Positions 1 through 13,082 of a stretch of 64,000 bases of DNA are shown piece by piece. The stretch spans positions 289,540-353,539 of the forward strand of contig NZ_JAGEVF010000003.1 in the NCBI RefSeq assembly GCF_017581965.1, in the 5' to 3' direction. This stretch comes from Winogradskyella pelagia (GTDB taxonomy: Bacteria; Bacteroidota; Bacteroidia; Flavobacteriales; Flavobacteriaceae). The first letter of the stretch is position 1, and every line of letters begins with the position of its first letter. The translations under genes were made by a program, and so were the position numbers. Below the pieces are notes generated by a model, which was not told the DNA's origin, made no database searches, and worked only from the letters and a program-made list of their open reading frames with translations.

Positions 1-87
1 CGCTACTACAAAGGAACGGTTTGGATCTTAATTGCCTTTGTTGGTTTTATAGCCCTATTAGCTACAGTGAAGTTTATGTTTATGTAG
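1..87 (+). CDS. C-terminal fragment of a membrane protein (partial)
   Basis: The window opens inside a reading frame that runs to a TAG at 85-87. The 28 visible residues form one hydrophobic helix (VWILIAFVGFIALLATVKF) ending in FMFM, so this is the C-terminal transmembrane segment of an inner-membrane protein. Too little is visible to name the family. The gap after it carries the first copy of the 18-bp palindrome (155-172). Confidence 0.6.
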   Translation, partial: RYYKGTVWILIAFVGFIALLATVKFMFM

Positions 88-154
88 TAGTTTAGGCCGT
101 TTTGTCTTAAAATTCTTATTAATTCCTTATTTTTTTATAACTTAACATTCAAAT

Positions 155-172
155 ATACCTAGAACTGGGTAT
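155..172. promoter_or_regulatory. 18-bp palindromic element, copy 1
   Basis: ATACCTAGAACTGGGTAT lies 60 bp before the ATG at 233. It matches three other copies (4240, 6078, 10445) to the consensus ATMCCYASWAYWGGGKAT, each flanked by an A run on the left and a T run on the right. This is the most diverged copy, with 5-bp arms ATACC/GGTAT. It is read as an operator; a weak terminator is the alternative. Confidence 0.5.
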
Positions 173-232
173 GTTTTTGTTTAGCCCTTCTTCTCATCTT
201 TGACTTAACATTAATTCAAAAACCAACTCTTA

Positions 233-964
233 ATGAAAACTAACATTCTAAAAGTTATGTCCTTGCTAATACTTTTGTCGTACTTCGGCTGCAAAGATTG
301 TGAAGACATAGAAACTCAACTAAATTCTAAAACTGTTGAACTGAGGCAAGCAAAGGATTCAATTATATCCTTGGCAGCAACATTGGAACAATGCCAAATA
401 ATTGCTTCAAAAGAATATGGAACAATACTACTAAATCCCTATAAGCCAATACAAAAACTTATTGAAATGACAGATGCTGAAAAGAAAACTTATGGGAAAA
501 GTCATTTCAAAATTGAATCGATTGATTTTAATATGTTCAACACAGAAAAAGGAGAGATACACCTAAAATTCCCTGTTTACAACCCTTCTGGCACATCCAT
601 GGAAATTATGGATATTATAAATGCATCAAGCGAAGACCTGAATGCCATTGTCGTTCTTGTAGATGGATTTGATGGAGAAAAAAATCGAGCCTCTGATGCC
701 ACCCATTTTATAGAAGCAAAAGCTCAAATTAAACGAATTAAAGGCTTGAGCAAAGCGATGCTTGCTGACCATGAACAGCTTAAAGTCTATATATTGCACG
801 ACACTGCATTTTATAGTGACAAACTTATTGACGGCTTTAGAGCTTGCGTAAAATCTGATGGAGCAGAATATGAAGCCAATATATGTCGGCTTCCTCCACC
901 TGTTTTAATATTAGACATCAATCGTCCCCGCGAACAAGAAGGCGATATTATAGTTGGTGGTTAG
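233..964 (+). CDS. Predicted lipoprotein of unknown function
   Basis: A 243-residue protein starts with a lipoprotein signal (hydrophobic stretch, then LSYFGC, lipidated Cys about residue 20), so it should be anchored in the outer or inner membrane. Residues about 24-55 are charged and heptad-like, suggesting a short coiled coil. No enzyme motif was recognised. The stop overlaps the proposed TTG start of the histidine kinase gene by about 11 bp, indicating co-transcription and possible translational coupling. A copy of the shared palindrome lies 60 bp upstream, so this gene probably opens the signalling operon. It may be an accessory sensor or envelope component; that role is inferred only from position. 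Confidence 0.75.
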   Translation: MKTNILKVMSLLILLSYFGCKDCEDIETQLNSKTVELRQAKDSIISLAATLEQCQIIASKEYGTILLNPYKPIQKLIEMTDAEKKTYGKSHFKIESIDFNMFNTEKGEIHLKFPVYNPSGTSMEIMDIINASSEDLNAIVVLVDGFDGEKNRASDATHFIEAKAQIKRIKGLSKAMLADHEQLKVYILHDTAFYSDKLIDGFRACVKSDGAEYEANICRLPPPVLILDINRPREQEGDIIVGG

Positions 965-2732
965 GTCCGGTTACATTTTGGTTTATTTTATGCTCCTGAG
1001 TTTTGCATTAAAAGCGCAGGAGAATACTTATTTTACGCTTACAGAACTGGATTCTATTTTTAATGCAGAAGCTTATTCTGATATTATAGGTTTGGATGTT
1101 TCGCAAATTAAAACCGTTAACAAGCAAGAGCTGGCTGAGGCCAACTTTATATTTGGTAAATCCTTTGAAAACCTTAACAAGGAAGACCAAGCGGTTAATT
1201 TATACAAAAAAGCATTGGAACTGTATACTGAGCTTGGCGACACAGAACAGGTTGCGAGGCTTAACCTAGAACTTTATCTCACTATTGATAGCCAAAACAA
1301 CCTTGAAGTTAAAAATACCGATTACCTTAACAAGGTGTATGAACATGCCAAAACCAACAATTCAGTGAAATGGTTGAGCGTATATTATACCAATTATGGT
1401 GTTGAAATGCTTAAAGCCAATCAAGGTGACTCTGCCAAATATTATTTTGAAGAAGCACTAGACCTGGCTCAACAAATAGACAGTACCAGAATGCAAACCA
1501 ATATTGCCATAAATCTTGGTTCGACCTATTCACGTAAATTCAGAAATCAGGATTCTGCCATTATCTATTACAACCAAGCATTGAAATATTATTTCTCAGA
1601 TACGCTCAACTACAAAGATTTAAATACAGCGTTCAACATATACAACAACATAGGGAATGCCTACCGTCGCAAAAAGGAGTACCAAAAAGCTCTGGACTAT
1701 TATTTCATGGCAGAAGCCATTGATTTACCCAAATTGAATAGCAAGAGTAAAAAAATCCTCTACTCCAATATGGACATTACCTATTATTATCTAAAAGACT
1801 GGCCCAAGGCCTACGATTACTTATATAAATACGATTCCATTAAGGATGTCATTAACTTAAAGGAGCAAAATTCTGCTATAACAGAGATTGAAGAACGATA
1901 CGACAATGAAAAACTTAGAGCAGATAATTTAGAGAGTGAAGCAAAACGCAAACAGAATCAGAACATTGCCATTGGCCTTGGTGGCAGTTTGGCTTTGGGC
2001 AGTATAATCGCATTTCTAGTGTTTAAAAACGTTAAACGTAAACAAAAGCTTACCGAACAAGCTAAAAAACTTCAAAGTCAAAAATTGTCAACAGTTCTAA
2101 AAGAACAAGAACTTAAGGCCATAGATGCCATGATAGAAGGTCAGGAAAAAGAACGGCAACGTATAGCAAATGATTTACATGATGATTTAGGCGGAATGAT
2201 GGCAACCGTAAAACTCCATTTTGATGCCCTAAAAAGAGATGCATCGAAAGACCTATTTGAAAAAACCAATAAGTTGATTAATGAGGCCTATCAAAAGGTA
2301 CGTACGGTTGCCCATGTCAAGAATTCTGGTGTCATGGCCAAACAAGGACTACTTAAAGCTGTTCAACACCTAGCTGATACGATTTCTGCAAGTAACCAAA
2401 TTGATATTGAAGTTGTTGACCATGGCTTAGACCAACGCCTTGAAAACAGTCTCGAGCTCACCCTTTTTAGGGTTATCCAAGAATTAGTAACCAATATCAT
2501 TAAACATGCCGAAGCCACTGAGGCGACCATCCATCTCACCCATCATGACGATAGTATAAATATCATGGTAGAGGATAACGGTAAGGGCTTCAATCCAAAG
2601 CAGATTACAAAAATGAATTATGGTATGGGTATTTCTAGCATTGACAAACGTGTAGAGCACTTGGATGGTAAGCTCAGTATTGAATCTGAATTGAATAAAG
2701 GTACCACTGTAATAATAGACATCCCCTTATGA
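954..2732 (+). CDS. TPR-containing sensor histidine kinase (HisKA_3/HATPase)
   Basis: This 592-residue kinase has an N-terminal signal-like segment (residues 1-21, ending in KAQ), TPR-like helical repeats about 60-300, one transmembrane helix about 337-357, a coiled coil about 360-405, a HisKA_3 dimerisation helix with phospho-acceptor His409 in ANDLHDDLGG, and a HATPase_c domain with N514 and DNGKGF at 541-546. The topology places the TPR region in the periplasm. TTG at 954 gives a complete signal sequence; the first ATG at 990 would remove half of it, so 954 (or GTG 957) is preferred. The 3' end overlaps the response-regulator gene by 4 bp, so the two form a cognate pair. Confidence 0.9.
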   Translation: MVVRSGYILVYFMLLSFALKAQENTYFTLTELDSIFNAEAYSDIIGLDVSQIKTVNKQELAEANFIFGKSFENLNKEDQAVNLYKKALELYTELGDTEQVARLNLELYLTIDSQNNLEVKNTDYLNKVYEHAKTNNSVKWLSVYYTNYGVEMLKANQGDSAKYYFEEALDLAQQIDSTRMQTNIAINLGSTYSRKFRNQDSAIIYYNQALKYYFSDTLNYKDLNTAFNIYNNIGNAYRRKKEYQKALDYYFMAEAIDLPKLNSKSKKILYSNMDITYYYLKDWPKAYDYLYKYDSIKDVINLKEQNSAITEIEERYDNEKLRADNLESEAKRKQNQNIAIGLGGSLALGSIIAFLVFKNVKRKQKLTEQAKKLQSQKLSTVLKEQELKAIDAMIEGQEKERQRIANDLHDDLGGMMATVKLHFDALKRDASKDLFEKTNKLINEAYQKVRTVAHVKNSGVMAKQGLLKAVQHLADTISASNQIDIEVVDHGLDQRLENSLELTLFRVIQELVTNIIKHAEATEATIHLTHHDDSINIMVEDNGKGFNPKQITKMNYGMGISSIDKRVEHLDGKLSIESELNKGTTVIIDIPL

Positions 2733-3352
2733 TACGAATAGCCATAGCAGAAGACCACCAAGCCCTCATTGACGGTATAGAACTACTGCTCAAATATGAA
2801 CAGGATATAGACATTGTAGGTACCACAAATGATGGGGAAGCCTTGCTTCATTTGGTTCGTTTAAAGGAACCTAACGTTGTCATTACGGATATTAGAATGC
2901 CCAAAATGGATGGCATAACCGTCACAGAAACCATAAAAAGGGAGTTCCCACATATAAAAGTATTGGCCTTTACAATGTTCGATCAAACCGAAGCTATACA
3001 ACAAATGCTTGAAGCCGGTGCTTCTGGATATTTGTTAAAAAACTCAGCACTAGGTGAGGTACTCAAAGCCATAAAAGCCGTTTATAACGGACAGACTTAT
3101 TTTGATGCCAATATCGAACTGAATTCAATTAGTACCTCTGGGAAAAAGAAAGGTAAACTCACCAAAAGACAAATAGAAATCTTGCGTTTGGTGGGCCAAG
3201 GAAAAACCTCAAGAGAAATTGCAGATGAACTATTCATTGGCATACATACTGTGGATACCCATAGAAAAAACATGACACGCATTTTGGGACTAAAAGGCAA
3301 AGGCGAATTGATGCGTTATGCACTTGAAAAGAAATATAAATTTAAACCCTAA
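2729..3352 (+). CDS. NarL/LuxR-type response regulator
   Basis: A 207-residue regulator with a receiver domain (acidic pocket AEDH at 8-10, phospho-acceptor Asp54 in VITDIRMPKMDG, and a conserved Lys in LLKNS) followed by a LuxR/GerE helix-turn-helix about 142-205 (LTKRQIEILRLVGQGKTSR, THRKN). It overlaps the kinase gene by ATGA and is almost certainly phosphorylated by it. NarL-type proteins bind short inverted repeats as dimers, so it is a prime candidate to bind the 18-bp palindromes at 155, 4240, 6078 and 10445. This target assignment is an inference. Its recognition-helix region resembles that of the orphan regulator at 10510. Confidence 0.95.
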   Translation: MIRIAIAEDHQALIDGIELLLKYEQDIDIVGTTNDGEALLHLVRLKEPNVVITDIRMPKMDGITVTETIKREFPHIKVLAFTMFDQTEAIQQMLEAGASGYLLKNSALGEVLKAIKAVYNGQTYFDANIELNSISTSGKKKGKLTKRQIEILRLVGQGKTSREIADELFIGIHTVDTHRKNMTRILGLKGKGELMRYALEKKYKFKP

Positions 3353-3357
3353 AATTG

Positions 3358-4209
3358 ATGAAGCATACAGTTCTTATTGTTACTATATTTCTATTGCTAT
3401 GTTCGTGCTCCACAATCAAACTCAATAGTTATGGAAAAATTGGTGAGAAATCCTACCAAAAAATAAAGACACAAGCAGAATTTGTGCACTTAAAAATAAC
3501 TGAGCACAGAACCTCAGCCTTAACAAATGTTGATGAAGAAAACAATATAAGTTCAGAGAGCTTTGACCCTAGCGGACTTATCATTGAACAGATTGTTAAA
3601 ATTCCAGATTACTTGGGGAAAATCATCAAGGACCGCAAAAAGAAATATACCCAAACCTATACCGCAAGAAATACGGTGCCATTTAAAACAGGTGTCATTG
3701 ATAATGATACAGGGGATAGTATTGCATTACCTAAACTTGAATTAACCAGAACCATTTTCACAAATGCTAAAGAAACCAATAATAAATCGGCAATGCGAAT
3801 TCAGTTTGATGCCATACCTATTGACGATAGTTTATTCGTTTTTAGCTTAAAGGATATAAAAAGCAGCTATACCAAAGCCAAGACCACAGAAAAATACCCA
3901 TATGTCAATTTGCTTATTGAAATCAAAGGCACTTATTACAGCCTAGTTAATGGAAAAATCAAAGAACAGGCTCAAGATGCAAATACTATAATTGTACCTG
4001 TCAGAAATCATACAGATACTAAGGAATTATTCAAAAATTCAAAAATCTACAGTGACCTCTTTAAAATAGATGGCCTAAAAACAATTGAGGTTAAAATAAC
4101 TGAAATTAATCCCTATCACTTAAAACTAGAAGAGTTGGAAAGTAATTTGTCGGCAAATCAAGAAGACATTAACAACTTACTTCAAAGACTCAAGGAATTG
4201 CTTAATTAA
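3358..4209 (+). CDS. Predicted lipoprotein of unknown function
   Basis: The protein has a lipoprotein signal peptide (VTIFLLLCSCS; Cys about residue 17-19) and no recognised enzymatic domain. ATG at 3358 is chosen over the adjoining TTG at 3355. It follows the response regulator by 5 bp, so it probably belongs to the same operon. The middle is Lys/Thr rich with predicted beta strands, and the last 30 residues look helical (ELESNLSANQEDINNLLQRL), a possible coiled coil. Together with the lipoprotein at 233 it brackets the two-component system, which suggests envelope-linked sensing or output. That is inference from position. Confidence 0.75.
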   Translation: MKHTVLIVTIFLLLCSCSTIKLNSYGKIGEKSYQKIKTQAEFVHLKITEHRTSALTNVDEENNISSESFDPSGLIIEQIVKIPDYLGKIIKDRKKKYTQTYTARNTVPFKTGVIDNDTGDSIALPKLELTRTIFTNAKETNNKSAMRIQFDAIPIDDSLFVFSLKDIKSSYTKAKTTEKYPYVNLLIEIKGTYYSLVNGKIKEQAQDANTIIVPVRNHTDTKELFKNSKIYSDLFKIDGLKTIEVKITEINPYHLKLEELESNLSANQEDINNLLQRLKELLN

Positions 4210-4239
4210 CAAGTATATTTCCATAACATAACTTAAAAA

Positions 4240-4257
4240 ATACCCACTACAGGGGAT
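4240..4257. promoter_or_regulatory. 18-bp palindromic element, copy 2
   Basis: ATACCCACTACAGGGGAT lies 58 bp before the ATG at 4316, within A-run and T-run flanks. One stem position (A opposite G) is not paired, although the bases match the shared consensus. That favours a protein-binding site over an RNA hairpin. Confidence 0.55.
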
Positions 4258-4315
4258 TTTTTGGCGTTAAGCGGTTTTGTATTTTTAAAATGTATTAACT
4301 AACGTATTTCATAAG

Positions 4316-6028
4316 ATGAAAAAAATTACATTACTCTTAGCATGTGTTGCGTGTTTTTCGCTAAATGCACAAATTTCTGACTATTTAACTAATCTAGGTA
4401 CCACTGTAGGTGTTACGAAAAGCGGTAACACACTTTATATTGGAAGTGTAGGTGAATCCAAAGTATTATCGGTTGACATGTCTTTACCAAACCCAGTTCC
4501 TCAAGATTTAATTACCGGAATATCTTTCCCAACAAAGCTTGTCGTCGTAGGTAATGAGCTTTATCTCACCTATGGGCTCAATAACGTAGGTAAAATAGAC
4601 CTATCAGCCCCAACGCCTCAACTAGAATTCGTCCTGGTTATTCCTGGTGCTTTCGGACTTGCTACTAAAGACAACTTTATGTATGTAGGCGACAGAAACA
4701 ATGGTCAAATACTAAGATTCGATTATACCGTTCCAACACCTACAAGCGAAGTTGTCATTGATAATCTTGGCAGTTTTATGGGAGATATTGCCTTTGACGG
4801 AAACGATTTGTATGTTGCCAGAGGTAGTGATGGCTTTGTCTCTAAAATTGATGTGACCCAAACTAACCCCACAGTTGAAAATGTGGTTATAGAATCTAGT
4901 GTTTTAGACGTAGCTATTGACAACGGCTTTTTGTATTATTCGGGAAGTAGCAGTTTAAAGCGTATTAACCTTACAGATACTAATCCCACACCTATTACCT
5001 TAGCGACTGGCTTAACTTCTATTTGGGATATGTTGATAGATAATGAATTCTATATCGTTCAGCAAACAGCACAACGCATAGCCACAGTTGACATCAATAA
5101 CTTATTAGACCCAACAGCGCATCCGGATTATTCTAATTTATTAGATGTCTATAATTCATTAGGGGGCACTAATTGGTCAGATAATGTAAATTGGCTAGAT
5201 ACCTCATTACCCATTGCTATGTGGACTGGTGTTAGCCTTTCTGATAACGGTAGTGTAGGCGGATTAAACTTACCTAACAACAATTTGACTGGTAACCTGC
5301 CTGCGACCTTAGGAAATTTAACGAATCTCTTATTTGTAAATCTTAGCGGAAATAATCTTGGAGGTTCTATTCCATTTAATAGTCCTACCATCAATCTTGA
5401 TATTTCTGATAACCTTTTTGATTTTTCCGACATAGAACCTTATTTCACTAGCGGTAATTACAATAGCATTACCTATTCACCACAACGCACAACTGATTTA
5501 CCAGAAGACTTTGAGAGCCCTCCTGGTACTAACTTCACTTTTGATGTTAACGATGCTGACATCAATAGAAACTCTGAGGCTACAGCATTAAACAATCAAT
5601 ACCAATGGTTTAAGGATAACGTCGCCATTTCTGGTGCTAATGCCTCCACATATGTAATTAACAATGCTCAGGAGACGGATAGTGGCATCTATTATTGCGA
5701 AATTACCAATCCTATATTACCAGGCCTAACGATTGCCCGGGCTCCAATCACCCTATTGATAGATGCCAGCTTAAGTATGGACACTGAACAGAATTTTAAT
5801 CTAATCTTATACCCAAATCCATCAAAAGAGTGGCTAAATATTCAATTTGGGGAAACCTTAGAGAAAGGCCTTCTAAGCATTTACGATGTAAATGGCAGAC
5901 TCATACAGCAAAAAGAGGTTTCTGGGGATACCCTATTACTCAATATTGAGAACCTTAATTCTGGTATGTATATCCTTAGTATTGAAGAGCAAAATTCTAA
6001 AGTCGTCAAACGCTTTATGAAGCAATAA
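4316..6028 (+). CDS. T9SS-secreted protein with beta-propeller-like, LRR and Ig-like regions
   Basis: A 570-residue secreted protein. A signal peptide (about 1-18, ending LNAQ) is followed by a repetitive beta region resembling NHL/SMP-30 propeller blades (about 20-265, recurring VDxxxPxP motifs). Next come LRR-like turns about 310-365 (NLPNNNLTGNLPATLGNLT), an Ig-like segment about 425-480 (YQWFKDNVAISG; SGIYYCEI), and a T9SS type A sorting domain about 498-570 (LYPNPSKEWLNI through VVKRFMKQ). It should be exported by T9SS and displayed on the cell surface or released. Many such proteins bind ligands or polysaccharides; the target is unknown here. Expression is probably controlled through the palindrome at 4240. 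Confidence 0.85.
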   Translation: MKKITLLLACVACFSLNAQISDYLTNLGTTVGVTKSGNTLYIGSVGESKVLSVDMSLPNPVPQDLITGISFPTKLVVVGNELYLTYGLNNVGKIDLSAPTPQLEFVLVIPGAFGLATKDNFMYVGDRNNGQILRFDYTVPTPTSEVVIDNLGSFMGDIAFDGNDLYVARGSDGFVSKIDVTQTNPTVENVVIESSVLDVAIDNGFLYYSGSSSLKRINLTDTNPTPITLATGLTSIWDMLIDNEFYIVQQTAQRIATVDINNLLDPTAHPDYSNLLDVYNSLGGTNWSDNVNWLDTSLPIAMWTGVSLSDNGSVGGLNLPNNNLTGNLPATLGNLTNLLFVNLSGNNLGGSIPFNSPTINLDISDNLFDFSDIEPYFTSGNYNSITYSPQRTTDLPEDFESPPGTNFTFDVNDADINRNSEATALNNQYQWFKDNVAISGANASTYVINNAQETDSGIYYCEITNPILPGLTIARAPITLLIDASLSMDTEQNFNLILYPNPSKEWLNIQFGETLEKGLLSIYDVNGRLIQQKEVSGDTLLLNIENLNSGMYILSIEEQNSKVVKRFMKQ

Positions 6029-6077
6029 CATTTAATTTTACCATTTAACGATAGAATAGGCATCTTGTGACCAAAAA

Positions 6078-6095
6078 ATCCCCAGTATTGGGGAT
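6078..6095. promoter_or_regulatory. 18-bp palindromic element, copy 3
   Basis: ATCCCCAGTATTGGGGAT has perfect 7-bp arms inside an A6/T8 context. It lies 61 bp before the ATG at 6157 and 50 bp after the previous stop. By itself it could be a bidirectional terminator, but its match in sequence and spacing to the copies at 155, 4240 and 10445 argues for an operator. Confidence 0.55.
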
Positions 6096-6156
6096 TTTTT
6101 TGTGTCTCCATGAAACCTAAATTGGAAACTGTTATTAACCAATAATTTAATTTACA

Positions 6157-7212
6157 ATGAAAACGATTACAAAAATCTTTAAAACAGCAATGGTGCTTTG
6201 CTTAGGTCTTACGATAACGGCCTTAAACGCACAAACCACACACATCGTTAATAATAATGCTGGTACAGCTGCAGACTTTGATAATCTACAGGCCGCCATT
6301 GATGCTGCGGCCAACGGGGATATTATTCACGTACAGCAATCCTCAACCAGCTATGGTAATGTGACATTAGATAAACAACTCACCATTATTGGGCGATCCC
6401 ATAGTGATGCGTCCTACTCTTCTGATATTGGTACATTAGAGCTTGTAGAAGGCTCTTCCAACAGTGTTATAAAAGGTCTTGACATTTCTAGTGTAAGTGA
6501 ACCTTTTGTGTCTGGTGGAAACTACGGTACAATCACAGATTTAGTTTTTCAAGATAACAAAATCGGAAACTTTCCAAATATTGGGATTTATAGAACCTTT
6601 AATAACATTTTAATGCAAGGAAACATTATTGGATCCTTTAGTATTGGTACAAATACTTCTAACTTTTTAGTTACCAATAATATATTCACTTCATCATCTG
6701 TATCCTTTAGTATGGTAGACACGTTGCTTTTTGCAAATAATATCGTAGGCTATTTTAATGGATTTTCTATTACCAATAATACACCTGATCTTCTAAATAT
6801 CAGTAACTGCTTGTTCATTGGGGATCGATTCGCTGATATCACGGTATCTTATTTTGGTACAGGACCTTTGCAAATTACCAATTGTTTAACCTACAACTAT
6901 GACGCTAACTACAATTTTGCAACAGGCAGTAACATTACCATAAGTAACAGCCAAGAAAACATTGACCCTTTATTTACCTTTAGAGATGGCAGTAACGGGA
7001 GTATTGGTACTTCGGGTACATTTAATCCAAATTTAGACGATTTAACACTACAAGCGGGCTCTCCATTTATCAATGATGGTATTTATGAGGCCTATAATTT
7101 TAAACCTTTAGGTACACCCACTGGACTGCCAAGCCTTAAAATTGACAGCTATGATCCAACGGTACCTAAAAATTCGGATCTAACGGTAACCATTACAGCC
7201 AAAACCAACTAA
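6157..7212 (+). CDS. Secreted parallel beta-helix protein
   Basis: A 351-residue protein with a signal peptide (about 1-25, ending LNAQ). A start resembling the pectate-lyase/DUF1565 fold (LQAAIDAAANGDIIHVQ, about 44-60) leads into Asn-rich repeated strands typical of a right-handed parallel beta-helix, about 60-300. The protein ends at KTN with no T9SS sorting domain, unlike both its neighbours, so it is probably periplasmic or exported in complex with a partner. The next gene starts 17 bp downstream without a terminator, so the two are likely co-transcribed from the promoter below the palindrome at 6078. No catalytic residues for lyase activity could be assigned. Confidence 0.75.
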   Translation: MKTITKIFKTAMVLCLGLTITALNAQTTHIVNNNAGTAADFDNLQAAIDAAANGDIIHVQQSSTSYGNVTLDKQLTIIGRSHSDASYSSDIGTLELVEGSSNSVIKGLDISSVSEPFVSGGNYGTITDLVFQDNKIGNFPNIGIYRTFNNILMQGNIIGSFSIGTNTSNFLVTNNIFTSSSVSFSMVDTLLFANNIVGYFNGFSITNNTPDLLNISNCLFIGDRFADITVSYFGTGPLQITNCLTYNYDANYNFATGSNITISNSQENIDPLFTFRDGSNGSIGTSGTFNPNLDDLTLQAGSPFINDGIYEAYNFKPLGTPTGLPSLKIDSYDPTVPKNSDLTVTITAKTN

Positions 7213-7229
7213 TCTTTAAACCATATTTT

Positions 7230-10200
7230 ATGAAAACGCATATCACATTATGGTTATGCTGTTGTATCACTTGGTTTAGTTTAGGGCAGTCTATTACAGA
7301 ATTGGAGTATTTCTTTAATACCGATCCTGGTTTTGGAAATGCCAACACATTGACACCCAATGCCAATTCGGGAGAGCTTTCTCAAAGCTTCAATATTTCA
7401 CCGCCAACAGATGCAACAGGCTTTAACACCCTATATATTAGAGCAAAAGATGATACTAACACTTGGTCTTTATACGCTAATAGTATTGTATTTATAACTG
7501 ATACAGACAACAGTGGTACGGCCACAGAACTCACAGCAGCAGAATATTTTATAAATACCGACCCAGGCTTTGGCAATGCTACAGCCTTACCGCTAAACAC
7601 AAATACTGGCAATCTCACCCAGAGTTTTCCCATACCTATTGGAGCGAGTCTCAGCGGATTTAACACAATATATATTCGTACACAAGATGATTTGGGGAAT
7701 TGGAGTCTTTACGATAACGTAAAATTCTTTGTTACTGAAGAACAAGGCAGTGGCGCTACCTCAATTACAGCTTTAGAATATTTTATAGATACCGACCCAG
7801 GATTTGGTAATGCTACTAGTGTTGGAGTTAACACCAATACGGGCAGTGTGTCGCAAAGTTTTGCTATTCCTCTAGTCAATTTAGATGAAGGCTTTCACAA
7901 CTTGTACATCAGAACCCAAGATGATTTTGGGGAATGGAGCTTATATGATAAACGCTTGTTCTTTGTTACACCAGAACAAAACGTGTCACCTATTGTAGCT
8001 GCAGAATATTTCTATGACGTTGATCCTGGTTTAGGTAATGGTACATCAGTAGTTTTGCAACCAACAGGTAATCTAGACGAATTTACTGTGGATTTAAGTA
8101 CAGCCGATATTACCTGCGACTTTCATGATTTCTACATTCGCCTAATTAATGAAGATGGCTCTTGGTCACTCTATGATTATGGTTTACAAATTGAAGTTTT
8201 TGATAACGCCGACCCCACCATTGTGGTCTTCAATGATATTACCGTAGAGTTAGATGCCAGTGGACAAGGGAGTTTGACCATCGCCGATGTGGATAACGGT
8301 ACCTTTGATGATTGCGAATTGGTATCTGTAGAACTGAACCAACCACAATTTGATTACACCTGTGCCGATTTAGGTACACAGACCGTGACAGTTACCGCCA
8401 CCGATGCGGAAGCTAAAGTGAGTACACTAGATGTTGCCATTACCGTGGTAGATCTTATTGATCCGGTAGCTTTAGCACAAAATATTACGGTGCAACTCAA
8501 CACTAACGGACAAGTCACCATCACAGCAGACGATTTGGAAAATGGTTCCACAGATAATTGTAGTATTACGAGCCGCAGTGTGGATGTTTCAAGTTTTGAT
8601 TGTTCCAATTTAGGAGATAACCTTGTCAATTTTACAGTAACAGACTCCTCTGGTAATACCAATACCGTTCAAGCTACGGTAACTGTAGAAGATTCGGTTA
8701 ATCCCGAAGCACTTACTCAAAATATAACCGTACAACTTGATGCCAGTGGAAATGCAACAATAACGGCAGATGATGTGGACCAGTCCACTGATAACTGCAG
8801 CATTGTAACCAAGGCTCTAGACATCACTTCATTTGATTGTTCCAATTTAGGTGCTAATACAGTCAATTTAACGGTGACGGATCAGAGTGGTAATTCAGCT
8901 TCAACTACTGCAACCGTGACCGTAGAAGATTCAATTTCACCAACGGTAATAACGCAAGATGTTACGGTACAGCTCGATAGTAATGGAACGGCAACAATCA
9001 CCACTGCTGACATTGAAAACGGATCAACGGATAATTGCGGTATATCGAGTTTAGCTTTAGACATCGACACTTTTGATTGCTCCAACCTAGGATCAAATAC
9101 GGTTACCCTAACCGTCACAGACCAAAGTGGTAACAGTGCTTTTGGGACAGCCAACGTCACAGTTGAAGATGGTGTTGCACCAACAGTCCTAGCTCAGAAT
9201 ATAACGTTACAGCTTGATGCCACTGGCAGTGCAACTTTAGACCCTGCTTTATTAGATAATGGGTCATCAGATAATTGTGGTATTGCCTCTTTTGCTTCAG
9301 ATATCACACTATTTAGTTGTAGTGATATAGGTGCTAATACAGTGAACTTAACGGTTACTGACACCTCTGGAAATACAGATGTAACAACAGCAACTGTAAC
9401 TGTAGAAGACGGAGTTGACCCTAGTGTTATTACACAAAATATAAGTATTGGCCTGGATAGTGGCGGTATAGCAACGATAACGGTTGACGATATTGATAAT
9501 GGATCTTCAGACAATTGTGGTATTGCCACAAGAACGTTAGACATTACAACCTTCGATTGCTCCAATTTAGGCGCAAACACGGTTACCCTTAACATTACAG
9601 ATGTGAATGGAAGAACTGGTAACGCCACAGCAACTGTAACGGTAACAGACAGTACGGACCCACTTGCAGTAAGCCAGAATATCACTTTAGAATTGGATGT
9701 TAATGGAAATGCAACCCTAACGCCTGATGCTATCGATGGCGGTTCATCAGACAATTGTGGCATTGATTCCCGCAGTATTGATGTATCTAGTTTTAGTTGT
9801 GTAGATTTAGGAGCGAACACCGTTAATTTAACGGTTTTTGATGCTAGTGGTAATTCCAATACAACGAGTGCAACGGTGACCGTGGAAGATAATCTCGACC
9901 CTATTGCATTGGGGCAAGACATCACCATTGGCTTGGAGGGCAATCCATCCGTTAGCATTGTAGCATTGGATGTAGACAATGGATCTTCAGATAATTGTGG
10001 CATAAACTCGTATACCATCGATGTTGATACATTTACAGCGGTAGGTACTTATCCGGTTGTACTAACAGTGACGGATGCCTCTGGAAACTCTAATTCAACA
10101 ACGGTTACCGTTACCGTAGAGGCTACCTTAGGGCTTTCTGAAAATAGTATTGACCCTAAACGGATAGATTTACATCCCAATCCGACACAGTACGAACTGC

Positions 10201-10379
10201 GTATTACAACAGATTATACGATTTCCCAATTTAGTATCTATGATGCTCTGGGAAAAGAAGTTCTTAAATCCAATAATAGCGCTAGCACTATAAATGTCCA
10301 AGGACTATCTAACGGTGTTTATTTTATAAAGTTGAGTATTGGTAGTACTTCTGTTGTAAAGCGCTTTATAAAACAATAA
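7230..10379 (+). CDS. Giant T9SS-secreted repeat protein (adhesin-like)
   Basis: A 1049-residue surface protein: signal peptide (1-20), four N-terminal repeats of about 78 residues each opening with EYFxxTDPGFGN, then eight HYR/Ig-like repeats of about 80 residues about 328-965 (each with DNCGI or DNCSI and a second Cys in FDCSNLG), and a T9SS type A sorting domain about 975-1049 (LHPNPTQYELRI to VVKRFIKQ). The two Cys per HYR-like repeat could form one disulfide each; the last repeat has lost the second Cys. Such stalk-like proteins are usually adhesins or matrix proteins; this is inferred from architecture. It is probably co-transcribed with the beta-helix gene. Confidence 0.88.
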   Translation: MKTHITLWLCCCITWFSLGQSITELEYFFNTDPGFGNANTLTPNANSGELSQSFNISPPTDATGFNTLYIRAKDDTNTWSLYANSIVFITDTDNSGTATELTAAEYFINTDPGFGNATALPLNTNTGNLTQSFPIPIGASLSGFNTIYIRTQDDLGNWSLYDNVKFFVTEEQGSGATSITALEYFIDTDPGFGNATSVGVNTNTGSVSQSFAIPLVNLDEGFHNLYIRTQDDFGEWSLYDKRLFFVTPEQNVSPIVAAEYFYDVDPGLGNGTSVVLQPTGNLDEFTVDLSTADITCDFHDFYIRLINEDGSWSLYDYGLQIEVFDNADPTIVVFNDITVELDASGQGSLTIADVDNGTFDDCELVSVELNQPQFDYTCADLGTQTVTVTATDAEAKVSTLDVAITVVDLIDPVALAQNITVQLNTNGQVTITADDLENGSTDNCSITSRSVDVSSFDCSNLGDNLVNFTVTDSSGNTNTVQATVTVEDSVNPEALTQNITVQLDASGNATITADDVDQSTDNCSIVTKALDITSFDCSNLGANTVNLTVTDQSGNSASTTATVTVEDSISPTVITQDVTVQLDSNGTATITTADIENGSTDNCGISSLALDIDTFDCSNLGSNTVTLTVTDQSGNSAFGTANVTVEDGVAPTVLAQNITLQLDATGSATLDPALLDNGSSDNCGIASFASDITLFSCSDIGANTVNLTVTDTSGNTDVTTATVTVEDGVDPSVITQNISIGLDSGGIATITVDDIDNGSSDNCGIATRTLDITTFDCSNLGANTVTLNITDVNGRTGNATATVTVTDSTDPLAVSQNITLELDVNGNATLTPDAIDGGSSDNCGIDSRSIDVSSFSCVDLGANTVNLTVFDASGNSNTTSATVTVEDNLDPIALGQDITIGLEGNPSVSIVALDVDNGSSDNCGINSYTIDVDTFTAVGTYPVVLTVTDASGNSNSTTVTVTVEATLGLSENSIDPKRIDLHPNPTQYELRITTDYTISQFSIYDALGKEVLKSNNSASTINVQGLSNGVYFIKLSIGSTSVVKRFIKQ
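7293..8210 (+). repeat. Four tandem ~78-codon repeats (EYFxxTDPGFGN)
   Basis: Four in-frame repeats, each about 235 bp, begin with an EYF..TDPGFGN motif and end in WSLY followed by a valine-rich strand. The fourth is the most diverged (EYFYDVDPGLGN). They are coding repeats within the giant secreted protein. Confidence 0.8.
8211..10130 (+). repeat. Eight tandem ~240-bp HYR/Ig-like coding repeats
   Basis: Eight head-to-tail units of about 80 codons, each with the order DPxxxxQNITVxLD, DNGSSDNCGI, DCSNLGANTVNLTVTD and VTVED. Units 2-7 are the most alike. The unit length is constant, which favours copy-number change by recombination. Confidence 0.85.
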
Positions 10380-10444
10380 CTTAAGTTAGTGTATTGCTGA
10401 GTTGCTATTAATCTAAGGGAAACCAAATCTCAGCAAACCGAAAA

Positions 10445-10462
10445 ATCCCCACTATTGGGGAT
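10445..10462. promoter_or_regulatory. 18-bp palindromic element, copy 4
   Basis: ATCCCCACTATTGGGGAT, nearly identical to copy 3, is flanked by A5 and T8. It lies 47 bp before the ATG at 10510 of a LuxR-type regulator and 66 bp after the giant gene's stop. It may also terminate that gene's transcript. Confidence 0.55.
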
Positions 10463-10509
10463 TTTTTTATGCCTAAGCTCAACGTATTTTTAGATAAAAG
10501 TAGGAAGAG

Positions 10510-10902
10510 ATGACCAACCATCAACGGATTTCAAAATTTATAAAAGATTTAAAAGTAAACGACACCAATTTATCGACCCATGATTTAATTGAGCTGCTAA
10601 AAGCTTCAAAACGAGTTTACGACAATGAAATAATTCTCGATGCCTTGATTCAATCCCTAAAAAGTATTCTGGCCAAAGACTTAAAGTTAAAACAAAAGCT
10701 AACTCAACGCGAATGTCAGATTGTTAAATTAATTGGAAAAGGATTTTCCAATTCGGATATGGCACAATACCTAAACCTGAGTGTCTCTACTATTGAGACG
10801 CACCGTAAAAACATTAGAAAGAAACTAACCTTAAAGGGAAATGATAATCTATTTGCCTTTGCATTGGTCTTTCAATTGCAGGAAGCGCATTTGCCAAATT
10901 AA
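10510..10902 (+). CDS. Orphan LuxR-type HTH transcriptional regulator
   Basis: A 130-residue protein with no receiver domain: a short charged N-terminal helix region (1-60) and a LuxR/GerE helix-turn-helix about 66-128 (LTQRECQIVKLIGKGFSNS, VSTIETHRKNIRKKL). The THRKN segment of the recognition region matches that of the response regulator at 2729, so the two could bind similar DNA. A copy of the shared palindrome sits 47 bp upstream of its start, which fits autoregulation or control by the two-component system. It closes the surface-protein locus and probably regulates it; targets are inferred, not shown. Confidence 0.88.
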   Translation: MTNHQRISKFIKDLKVNDTNLSTHDLIELLKASKRVYDNEIILDALIQSLKSILAKDLKLKQKLTQRECQIVKLIGKGFSNSDMAQYLNLSVSTIETHRKNIRKKLTLKGNDNLFAFALVFQLQEAHLPN

Positions 10903-10995
10903 ATTTATAACGACAGAAAATCTTTTTGAATATGCTTGTTATCTTAATCTTACTTCTGATAAATTTTTTACTTCTAAAATATAGTATCAACAAAA

Positions 10996-11023
10996 AAAAG
11001 CAACCATAATAATGATTGCTTTT
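10996..11023. terminator. Bidirectional terminator between convergent genes
   Basis: AAAAGCAA and TTGCTTTT form a hairpin (with one internal mismatch and a short inner stem) between the LuxR-type gene and the convergent peptidase gene. An A run and a T-rich tail flank it. Confidence 0.6.
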
Positions 11024-11042
11024 CTCTAAGTAATACTAATTT

Positions 11043-13082
11043 TTAATTCACATCAGGTAAATTATTGTATTTACTGCTGTAGTCTAACATCTGTTCTGGG
11101 AATCCCACCGGTTGGGTGACTTTAATAGCTGTTATTTCACCATTGTCATTCACCTCTGGTACCAATACCGGGTTTACAAAACCACTATACGGTGCAGATG
11201 TAAATTGTTTATTTCGCTCCAATACCTCAGCATGAATGTCTTGATCAACCTTAACACCATAACCTTCTACTAAGGCCTCAACAGCAGCATAATCGCCTTC
11301 GGATTTAATGCGTTGGGTTTCTCGTAATAATTGACCAAATAGCTCATGTAATTTGTCGTAATCGTTGATATTGAAATAGGTCTTACCATCTCGTGTTACC
11401 TTTTCAATAACATTATCTGCCTTACCTTTTTCGTAAACCCAAGCACTCACCCATTGCCTGTTACGCATATGGGCTTCTTCTACATCGTCTCCTAAATTCA
11501 ATCGAATCAATTGGGTCATTAAACCATTTCTTATATACCCATCATAAGCAGCCATACCTACTTTTTTCCAATCTTCGACCAAACCAAGCTCCTGTAGTTT
11601 TGAATCGTATAAATAATACAACCCAACCAAGTCTGCCCTTCCTTCTTCCAAGGTGGAAGCGTAATTCTTTAGCGTTTCTTTGGTTTCTCCAACCCCTGGA
11701 TTCAATTGTCCTGAGGCGTGACCAATAACTTCATGAAGTGCAGTATGTAACTTATCCGCCAACTGACCGTAGTCTTTTTCCAACTGGTACTCTTCATCGT
11801 CATGCACAAACTCTTTTAATCGGCCTGAACTTCCTGCATTATTATACGCATTGATAATATTACCCAACGAGACAGACTTACTTCCCACTTCTTTACGTAT
11901 CCAATTAGCATTTGGTAAATTAACGCCTATCGGTGTGCTTGGAGATGCATCGCCAGCTTCACCGGCTACAGTGACTACTTTATAGGTTACACCAACAACA
12001 TTTTTCTTCTTATGTGCATCCATTAAAGGCGAATTATCTTCAAACCATTGCGCATTGTCTGACAACACCTTCATTTTTTGGGACATGTCAAAATCATTGA
12101 TTTGAACAATATTCTCGTATGAACCTCTGTATCCTAAAGGATCATTATACACTTCGATAAAACTATTAATGTAATCAACATTACCTGCTGTAGCAGCGGT
12201 CCAAGCTACGTTATAGTCATCCCATATTTGTAAATCGCCCGTTTTATAATACTGAATCAATAGGCCAATCGCATCACCTTGGGCTTTATTCTCAGCAACA
12301 CCTTGGGCTTTCTCCAACCATTTTACAATTTCATCTATAGCAGAACCATACAATCCTCCAGACTTATAAACGCGTTCTTTGAGCGCTCCATCTTCTTTAA
12401 CGAGTTGGGAATTTAAACCGAAAGCTAATGGTCTATCTGGATTAGGTGATGTTTTATTCTTATAAAAACTTATGACATCGTCATTGGTTACATTTGGGCC
12501 GTAAAAATTAACGGCAGATAAAGCCACATTATCTACACCTTTAGCCTGATTTACCTTTTTGCTGTCCTTATCATTAAATATAACATTAAAAACTTCGCCA
12601 TCTAATTTTGTGTTGGTAGCCAAAAACAATTCGTTTAAATAGTCTTTAGAAAAATCTGGTTTTAGCTTGTCGTTGGAGTAATGGTGATGAATACCATTGC
12701 TAAACCAGATACGCTTTAAATAGACCTCAAAGGCTTTCCAGTCTTCGGTAGATTTATCGCCATTATAATTTGTATAAACATTTTCCAGGGCACGTCTTAT
12801 CTTTAAATTGTGCCTGTAATTTTGGTCCCACATAATATCTCTACCAGCCAAACCTGCTTCTACGAGATAATAAACCAATTTTTGTTCTTTAAGGCTAAGG
12901 TTCTCCCATCCTGGGATTTGATATCGAAGTATCTTAACATCAGCAAACTGCTCTACGTTATAATCAAATTTAGTTTCTGAAGTCGATACATCCTGATCGT
13001 CAACCTTAGACTTTCCATCATCTTTACACGCCACAAAAAGCAATATAAAAACGAGGTAGTACATTAGGGATTTTAGTTTCAT
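11043..13082 (-). CDS. Dipeptidyl-peptidase III-like lipoprotein (peptidase family M49)
   Basis: A 679-residue zinc peptidase with the M49 signature HEVIGH at 450-455 and the second metal/catalytic motif EEGRAD at 479-484. M49 enzymes remove dipeptides from the N terminus of short peptides. The N terminus is a lipoprotein signal (FILLFVAC, Cys19), so unlike the cytosolic eukaryotic enzyme it should work on the periplasmic or outer-membrane face, probably on peptides released by extracellular proteolysis. Length fits bacterial DPP III. A TACATTTG box lies about 27-34 bp upstream of its ATG; the gene is divergent from 13178, with about 95 bp between the two starts. Confidence 0.88.
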   Translation of the reverse strand: MKLKSLMYYLVFILLFVACKDDGKSKVDDQDVSTSETKFDYNVEQFADVKILRYQIPGWENLSLKEQKLVYYLVEAGLAGRDIMWDQNYRHNLKIRRALENVYTNYNGDKSTEDWKAFEVYLKRIWFSNGIHHHYSNDKLKPDFSKDYLNELFLATNTKLDGEVFNVIFNDKDSKKVNQAKGVDNVALSAVNFYGPNVTNDDVISFYKNKTSPNPDRPLAFGLNSQLVKEDGALKERVYKSGGLYGSAIDEIVKWLEKAQGVAENKAQGDAIGLLIQYYKTGDLQIWDDYNVAWTAATAGNVDYINSFIEVYNDPLGYRGSYENIVQINDFDMSQKMKVLSDNAQWFEDNSPLMDAHKKKNVVGVTYKVVTVAGEAGDASPSTPIGVNLPNANWIRKEVGSKSVSLGNIINAYNNAGSSGRLKEFVHDDEEYQLEKDYGQLADKLHTALHEVIGHASGQLNPGVGETKETLKNYASTLEEGRADLVGLYYLYDSKLQELGLVEDWKKVGMAAYDGYIRNGLMTQLIRLNLGDDVEEAHMRNRQWVSAWVYEKGKADNVIEKVTRDGKTYFNINDYDKLHELFGQLLRETQRIKSEGDYAAVEALVEGYGVKVDQDIHAEVLERNKQFTSAPYSGFVNPVLVPEVNDNGEITAIKVTQPVGFPEQMLDYSSKYNNLPDVN

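What the first reader, a model, noticed from the sequence alone, without database searches (positions are those of the whole stretch)
155..10462. Four-copy 18-bp palindrome marks a candidate regulon of surface-protein genes
Seen: ATACCTAGAACTGGGTAT (155), ATACCCACTACAGGGGAT (4240), ATCCCCAGTATTGGGGAT (6078) and ATCCCCACTATTGGGGAT (10445). Gaps to the next ATG are 60, 58, 61 and 47 bp. All four lie in A-run/T-run flanks and all precede genes of one locus: a lipoprotein-kinase-regulator operon, two secreted-protein units and an orphan LuxR regulator. Copies 1 and 2 keep the base pattern but not full stem pairing, which fits a protein site better than an RNA hairpin. Known: NarL/LuxR-type proteins bind short inverted repeats. 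Inferred: the response regulator (2729) or the LuxR protein (10510) binds them and co-ordinates expression.
Basis: partly seen in the sequence, partly recalled or inferred. Interest (0 to 1): 0.75.

Follow-up and report, generated by a model that had tools for sequence, protein, structure and literature searches.

The report
Response-regulator promoter switch for surface genes
Four 18-letter palindromes each sit exactly 23 bases before a promoter-like box, ahead of a sensor operon, two surface-protein units and a small regulator gene; they are likely the docking sites of the sensor's own response regulator, and such palindromes recur around relatives of that regulator in 74 of the 80 loci examined, mostly from flavobacteria.

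Summary
The palindromes are where stated, and in the 3.36 Mb genome they are the only perfect matches to a slightly loosened consensus. In 80 loci around orthologues of response regulator (RR) 2729 there are 155 such sites against 3 for the reversed pattern; 97 of 155 carry the box at +23, against a mean of 1.6 at other offsets. Geometry: a NarL-like 7-2-7 inverted repeat centred near -43.5, as for an activator beside RNA polymerase. The likely binder is RR 2729, autoregulating its kinase operon. LuxR protein 10510 looks like an optional target: full-length stand-alone homologues lie in 6 of 80 loci. Terminators are probably not the main function, though copies 3 and 4 could double as such. 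The regulon is local here; targets differ greatly between genomes and 8 of 98 carry a T9SS tail. Sites with the box also occur in genomes without this RR (17 of 25 tested), so other proteins probably share the operator. Binding and activation are untested.

The parts
155..172 (.). palindrome copy 1, predicted operator of the lipoprotein-kinase-RR operon
195..202 (+). -7-like box CATCTTTG, 23 nt after copy 1; predicted start site about 207
233..964 (+). lead gene of the operon, lipoprotein-like, no Pfam family; possible sensor partner
954..2732 (+). TPR sensor histidine kinase (HisKA_3, HATPase_c); in-frame ATG also at 990
2729..3352 (+). NarL/FixJ-type response regulator, likely binder of the sites
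3358..4209 (+). lipoprotein-like protein, no Pfam family, last gene of the operon
4240..4257 (.). palindrome copy 2, predicted operator
4280..4287 (+). -7-like box TATTTTTA, 23 nt after copy 2; predicted start site about 4292
4316..6028 (+). surface protein with Ig-like domain and T9SS sorting domain
6078..6095 (.). palindrome copy 3, predicted operator; could also fold as a terminator hairpin
6118..6125 (+). -7-like box TAAATTGG, 23 nt after copy 3; predicted start site about 6130
6157..7212 (+). secreted-type protein, no Pfam family
7230..10379 (+). HYR/PKD-repeat surface protein with T9SS sorting domain
10445..10462 (.). palindrome copy 4, predicted operator; could also fold as a terminator hairpin
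10485..10492 (+). -7-like box TATTTTTA, 23 nt after copy 4; predicted start site about 10497
10510..10902 (+). stand-alone LuxR-type (GerE) protein without receiver domain; predicted target, possible feedback regulator

Best explanation
The four palindromes are likely operators of the response regulator encoded at 2729, each lying exactly 23 nt upstream of a sigma-A -7-like box, from which the regulator would activate its own kinase operon, two surface-protein units and a small LuxR-type gene. Shown by sequence: the sites, the fixed spacing in the window, and the recurrence of site and spacing around orthologues of this regulator. Inferred: a dimer of the phosphorylated regulator reads the two heptamers (TACCYAN-NN-NTRGGTA, a 7-2-7 inverted repeat) centred near -43.5 and makes up for a missing -33 element, as a class-II activator does. 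Also inferred: positive autoregulation, a lead protein that partners the periplasmic TPR sensor, and feedback by LuxR 10510 on the same sites.
For: (1) 155 sites with at most 1 mismatch in 80 RR-orthologue loci against 3 for the reversed pattern; 74 of 80 loci. (2) TAnnTTTG at 5 or more of 6 letters at +23 in 97 of 155, mean 1.6 and largest 8 at offsets other than +22 to +24; all four window copies, which were not in that set, have it at +23 and at no other of 52 offsets. (3) Distance from site to ATG peaks at 50-59 bp. (4) Among 120 genomes, two or more perfect sites in 14 of 28 with the RR orthologue and in 7 of 92 without (Fisher 2.7e-6); 23 of 68 sites in RR genomes lie within 10 kb of the RR. 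(5) The RR is a receiver-GerE protein, and its recognition helix (T-V/I-D-T-H-R-K-N) is kept in nearly all orthologues listed. (6) NarL, of the same protein family, binds 7-2-7 inverted repeats and works from -44.5 at ogt1052 (PMC9314961, passages).
Against: No binding or expression data. Sites with the box also occur away from the RR and in genomes without it (22 of 39 and 17 of 25 tested), so the operator is not exclusive to this RR. 7 of 28 genomes with the RR have no perfect site. LuxR 10510 has nearly the same recognition helix. The fit between helix class and site letters (T at position 6 in 18 of 56 sites for H-type helices, 61 of 87 for S/T-type) is confounded by kinship. Activation rather than repression is inferred from geometry alone.
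Confidence: 0.78

Rival explanations
1. The palindromes are intrinsic terminators of the preceding genes.
For: Copies 3 and 4 fold at -18.5 and -16.7 kcal/mol (z -4.4 and -5.3) and end in a T-run; 95 of the 149 intergenic sites in relatives lie within 75 bp of a 3' end. At columns 6/13, T-G (40), which an RNA can pair, outnumbers C-A (15).
Against: 103 of 155 sites lie 35-75 bp before a start codon, 34 of them with no 3' end within 75 bp; columns 3/16 mispair in 28 of 155. The spacing to the -7-like box is fixed (97 of 155 at +23) while distances to the preceding stop vary widely. Copy 2 has two mispairs.
Confidence: 0.08
2. The stand-alone LuxR protein 10510, not the RR, is the main binder.
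For: Its recognition helix TIETHRKN is nearly that of the RR, TVDTHRKN; where a full-length homologue occurs, 5 of 6 have a site within 150 bp upstream, and two short ones of three as well.
Against: Full-length stand-alone homologues lie in 6 of 80 RR loci and short ones in 3 more, while 74 of 80 loci have sites. Homologues elsewhere in those genomes were not searched for.
Confidence: 0.1
3. The sites are operators at which the regulator represses rather than activates.
For: The site, about -52 to -35 by inference, ends next to the -33 region and is followed by a T-run, so a bound protein could hinder polymerase.
Against: A strictly kept spacing to the -7-like box is more typical of contact with polymerase; NarL works as activator from a similar place (PMC9314961, passages).
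Confidence: 0.12

Closest known systems
NarL/NarP 7-2-7 inverted-repeat operators (Escherichia coli)
   Same: Two 7-bp elements as an inverted repeat with a 2-bp spacer, read by a NarL-family regulator; a single site at -44.5 drives ogt1052 (PMC9314961, passages; PMC2718512, passages). The half-site TACCYA also fits the NarL heptamer TACYYMT, which I recall and did not find in a call.
   Different: Other phylum, a sigma-A promoter of the TAnnTTTG type, one site per promoter as a rule, a TPR sensor instead of a nitrate sensor, and variable surface-protein targets.
Bacteroidetes sigma-A promoter box TAnnTTTG
   Same: The block at +23 to +30 matches the consensus placed at -12 to -5 in Flavobacterium psychrophilum (PMC9723704, section 15 part 1).
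   Different: Here the box is tied at a fixed distance to an operator. The main text of that paper holds neither 'palindrom' nor 'LuxR'; its supplements were not seen.
VraR, DesR and other NarL/FixJ response regulators with solved structures
   Same: Whole-length sequence matches of RR 2729 (best: VraR, E 6.4e-32; DesR; NarL 1a04).
   Different: Their operators and signals were not compared here.

Membership tests
NarL/FixJ-family response regulator (RR 2729) | receiver domain followed by a GerE/LuxR-type helix-turn-helix | tested here: met
   Response_reg 6.1e-27 and GerE 1.7e-14
NarL-type 7-2-7 operator | inverted repeat of two 7-bp elements, 2 bp apart | tested here: met
   logo of 187 sites reads TACCYAN-NN-NTRGGTA; layout as described in PMC9314961
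NarL-type 7-2-7 operator | bound by the cognate response regulator | not testable with these tools
   no binding data; co-occurrence only
Bacteroidetes sigma-A promoter | TAnnTTTG -7 box | tested here: met
   97 of 155 sites and 4 of 4 window copies at +23 with 5 or more of 6 letters; transcription start not measured
Class-II activator promoter | regulator needed for transcription from the adjoining promoter | not testable with these tools
   geometry only
Intrinsic terminator | paired stem with T-run at the 3' end of a transcript | tested here: inconclusive
   copies 3 and 4 fit, copy 2 has two mispairs; 54 of 155 sites in relatives have no 3' end within 75 bp and are intergenic
Genome-wide T9SS regulon | further sites before T9SS-secreted genes across the genome | tested here: not met
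   only the four local perfect sites; looser matches near background

The most novel reading that the evidence does not exclude
A portable operator-promoter cassette (18-bp palindrome, 22-nt spacer, -7 box) is the conserved core of a family-wide flavobacterial surface-response island: kinase domain, regulator and operator are kept, while the periplasmic sensor, its partner lipoprotein and the cargo behind each copy are swapped or diversify quickly, so that one fixed switch is rewired to new stimuli and new surface proteins, with a stand-alone LuxR protein as optional feedback.
Probability: 0.45. Interest if true: 0.68.

Novelty: new member of a known kind. Interest (0 to 1): 0.52.

Why it matters
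It gives a readable promoter grammar (site, spacing, box, predicted start) for a two-component system spread through Flavobacteriaceae, where I know of few response-regulator operators. Targets can be listed in many genera from sequence alone, and the pattern of a kept switch with changing sensors and cargo makes the signal and the role of the surface proteins open to simple reporter tests.

Tried and rejected
Wider regulon in this genome: rejected; no further perfect sites. Of the 20 other near-match loci fetched (L005-L024; the remaining strand matches were not fetched), only a pair of sites in L005/L011 (the same stretch) and one in L012 have a box-like octamer at +23.

Known RNA element: no Rfam family in window 1-13000.

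Same operator before other GerE regulators of this genome: a relaxed 7-2-7 pattern with the box turned up only in the RR 2729 locus among 10 GerE loci; these stretches are only about 3.1 kb long, so distant operon promoters were not covered.

Who binds the sites in genomes without the RR: in five stretches of G054, G060 and G082 no site lay directly before a NarL-type kinase/RR operon. Left unexplained. One paralogous pair (about 42% RR identity, G102, L168) does have a perfect site with boxes on both strands before its operon.

Matrix scores over the training loci (first half) are circular, so I rely on the literal-consensus count and on sites outside the training set.

Papers: ten searches listed nothing that by title or abstract start describes this operator; two searches returned nothing; one search showed 10 of 294 hits, unrelated by title. 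Most subscription papers are not held, so this absence is weak.
Full report
OBSERVATION. The four palindromes are at the stated places with the stated gaps to the next ATG. At up to 3 mismatches the window gives 13 strand matches against 2.07 expected, with 0 of 100 shuffles reaching 13. In the assembly (3,363,831 bases, 58 contigs) the loosened pattern has perfect matches at these four places only; with up to 2 mismatches there are 60 strand matches against 49 for the reversed pattern, so no wider regulon stands out here.

THE PROMOTER BOX. I aligned 187 intergenic sites (up to 2 mismatches) from relatives on the palindrome, selecting for nothing downstream. A second conserved block appears at +23 to +30 after the site: A at +24 (74%), T at +27 (88%), T at +28 (90%), T at +29 (67%), G at +30 (52%); the T at +23 itself is weak (43%). 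That is the Bacteroidetes -7 box TAnnTTTG, placed at -12 to -5 in Flavobacterium psychrophilum (PMC9723704, section 15 part 1 read). Counting the literal consensus at 5 or more of 6 letters in the 155 sites with at most 1 mismatch: 97 at +23, 23 at +22, 2 at +24, and a mean of 1.6 (largest 8) at the other 49 offsets. The window copies, not in that set, have CATCTTTG, TATTTTTA, TAAATTGG and TATTTTTA at +23, and no other of 52 offsets reaches 5 of 6. A matrix trained on the relatives ranks +23 first of 45 offsets in all four. With the box at -12 to -5, each site spans about -52 to -35 and is centred at -43.5; predicted start sites are about 207, 4292, 6130 and 10497 (inferred).

WHICH REGULATOR. 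These 80 loci (1,525,849 bases) hold 74 perfect and 81 one-mismatch sites against 0 and 3 for the reversed pattern; 74 of 80 loci have at least one and 52 have two or more. The six without are L050, L051, L054, L055, L103 and L104. L055 has two 2-mismatch intergenic sites, one of them with the box, and L050, L051 and L054 each have a 3-mismatch version with the box beside the kinase or RR (a looser search of chosen loci); L103 and L104 hold distant RR relatives (38% and 33% identity). Counting also 2-mismatch sites that carry the box, 60 of 80 loci have a site 1.2-5 kb before the RR, where the kinase operon usually begins, 52 have one within 1.5 kb after the RR, and 13 have one just before the RR. 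Full-length stand-alone homologues of LuxR 10510 lie in 6 of 80 loci (L025, L026, L034, L042, L043, L047); 5 of the 6 have a site within 150 bp upstream; three more loci have short matches (L028, L062, L069), two of them with a perfect site within 150 bp upstream. So the sites follow the RR, and LuxR 10510 behaves like an optional target. The two proteins have nearly the same recognition helix (TVDTHRKN and TIETHRKN), so feedback by LuxR on the same sites is plausible but untested. Site letters differ between helix classes (T at position 6 in 18 of 56 sites for H-type, 61 of 87 for S/T-type), but kinship alone could explain this.

GENOME SURVEY. Of 120 genomes of the family, 28 have an RR orthologue: 27 with 56% identity or more, and one partial match at 73%; the next matches are at 44% (at most 26 candidates were scored per genome, so a few could be missed). 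Perfect sites number 68 in those 28 and 44 in the other 92, 112 in all against 30 for the reversed pattern by my count of the table (8 and 22). Two or more sites: 14 of 28 against 7 of 92 (Fisher 2.7e-6); 7 of the 28 have none. By my count 23 of the 68 lie within 10 kb of the RR. Of the 45 other sites in RR genomes, 39 were tested, one was set apart because it belongs to a paralogous pair, and 5 were not fetched; 22 of 39 have the box at +23 on the better of two strands, against 5.0% on average at other offsets. Of the 44 sites in genomes without the RR, 25 were tested and 17 have the box (4.7% at other offsets). This counts against exclusivity: the operator is probably shared with other regulators. 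One example is a paralogous kinase/RR pair (about 42% RR identity) whose operon is preceded by a perfect site with boxes on both strands (L168).

TERMINATOR TEST. Copies 3 and 4 would make good terminator hairpins. But of 155 sites 103 lie 35-75 bp before a start codon, 34 of them with no 3' end within 75 bp; 26 are near a 3' end only, 20 near neither, and 6 are inside ORFs (ORFs were called mechanically). Columns 3/16 mispair in 28 of 155; at columns 6/13, T-G (40) outnumbers C-A (15), which on its own would suit an RNA stem. The box spacing is fixed while the distance to the preceding stop is not. I take termination as at most a second role, for copies 3 and 4.

WHAT IT CONTROLS. In relatives, 98 target genes (13 RR genes removed from 111) have signal-like N-termini in 56 cases, against 268 of 744 other plus-strand ORFs of the same loci, by a simple heuristic. 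Pfam finds Por_Secre_tail in 8 of 98, LRR and Ig families in up to 5, Trypsin_2 in 5 and subtilase in 3. In 95 randomly drawn other plus-strand ORFs, which include kinases and RRs, Por_Secre_tail is not among the 25 families shown of 110. The 48 targets after the RR fall into 30 clusters, the 50 lead genes before it into 13 (one of these is the kinase itself). The kinase halves of 72 kinases, the window's included, all hit one another (median 58% identical), whereas 1711 of 2556 pairs of sensor halves have no BLAST hit (some ORF starts are probably too short, and sensor halves evolve fast in many kinases). Lead-gene similarity follows sensor similarity after control for the kinase half (partial r 0.42, 0 of 2000 permutations, 46 loci). 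I read this as a conserved switch with fast-changing sensor, partner and cargo (inferred).

KNOWN KINDS. The layout TACCYAN-NN-NTRGGTA is a 7-2-7 inverted repeat as described for NarL (PMC9314961 and PMC2718512, passages only), and a NarL site at -44.5 drives the ogt1052 promoter. RR 2729 is a NarL/FixJ-family protein with VraR and DesR as the best solved matches. It would work like a NarL-type class-II activator; binding was not tested. What is new is a rule kept across the family and its promoter geometry, not a new kind of system. By the best matches of the RR (79-80% identity, Winogradskyella records) the window comes from a flavobacterium near that genus.

Noticed in passing
L168 (G102:C1:1500000-1514000), site at 8889: A paralogous kinase/RR pair (about 42% RR identity) has a perfect palindrome in a divergent promoter with -7-like boxes at +23 on both strands.
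   Followed up: partly
L076, L079, L084 and other Tenacibaculum and Polaribacter loci, about 9880-9943: A further site lies in the gap between kinase and RR, about 40-50 bp before the RR start, so the RR may have its own promoter there (13 of 80 loci).
   Followed up: partly
L064, L068, L072, L074, L075 (Kordia records): Gene order is changed: the RR comes first and the kinase gene lies downstream, with a site after the RR and, in most, another after the kinase.
   Followed up: partly
G054, G060, G082 (L146, L201-L205): Genomes without the RR orthologue hold several palindromes with the box at +23, not directly before a NarL-type kinase/RR operon; the binder is unknown.
   Followed up: partly
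window 6157-10379; L044, L046, L099, L161: The pair 6157 (no Pfam family) plus HYR-repeat protein 7230 recurs as a cassette near the RR in other genomes.
   Followed up: no
G000:C3:35564-35615 (L005, L011): Two imperfect palindromes 34 bp apart elsewhere in the own genome, one with a weak box-like octamer at +23.
   Followed up: no
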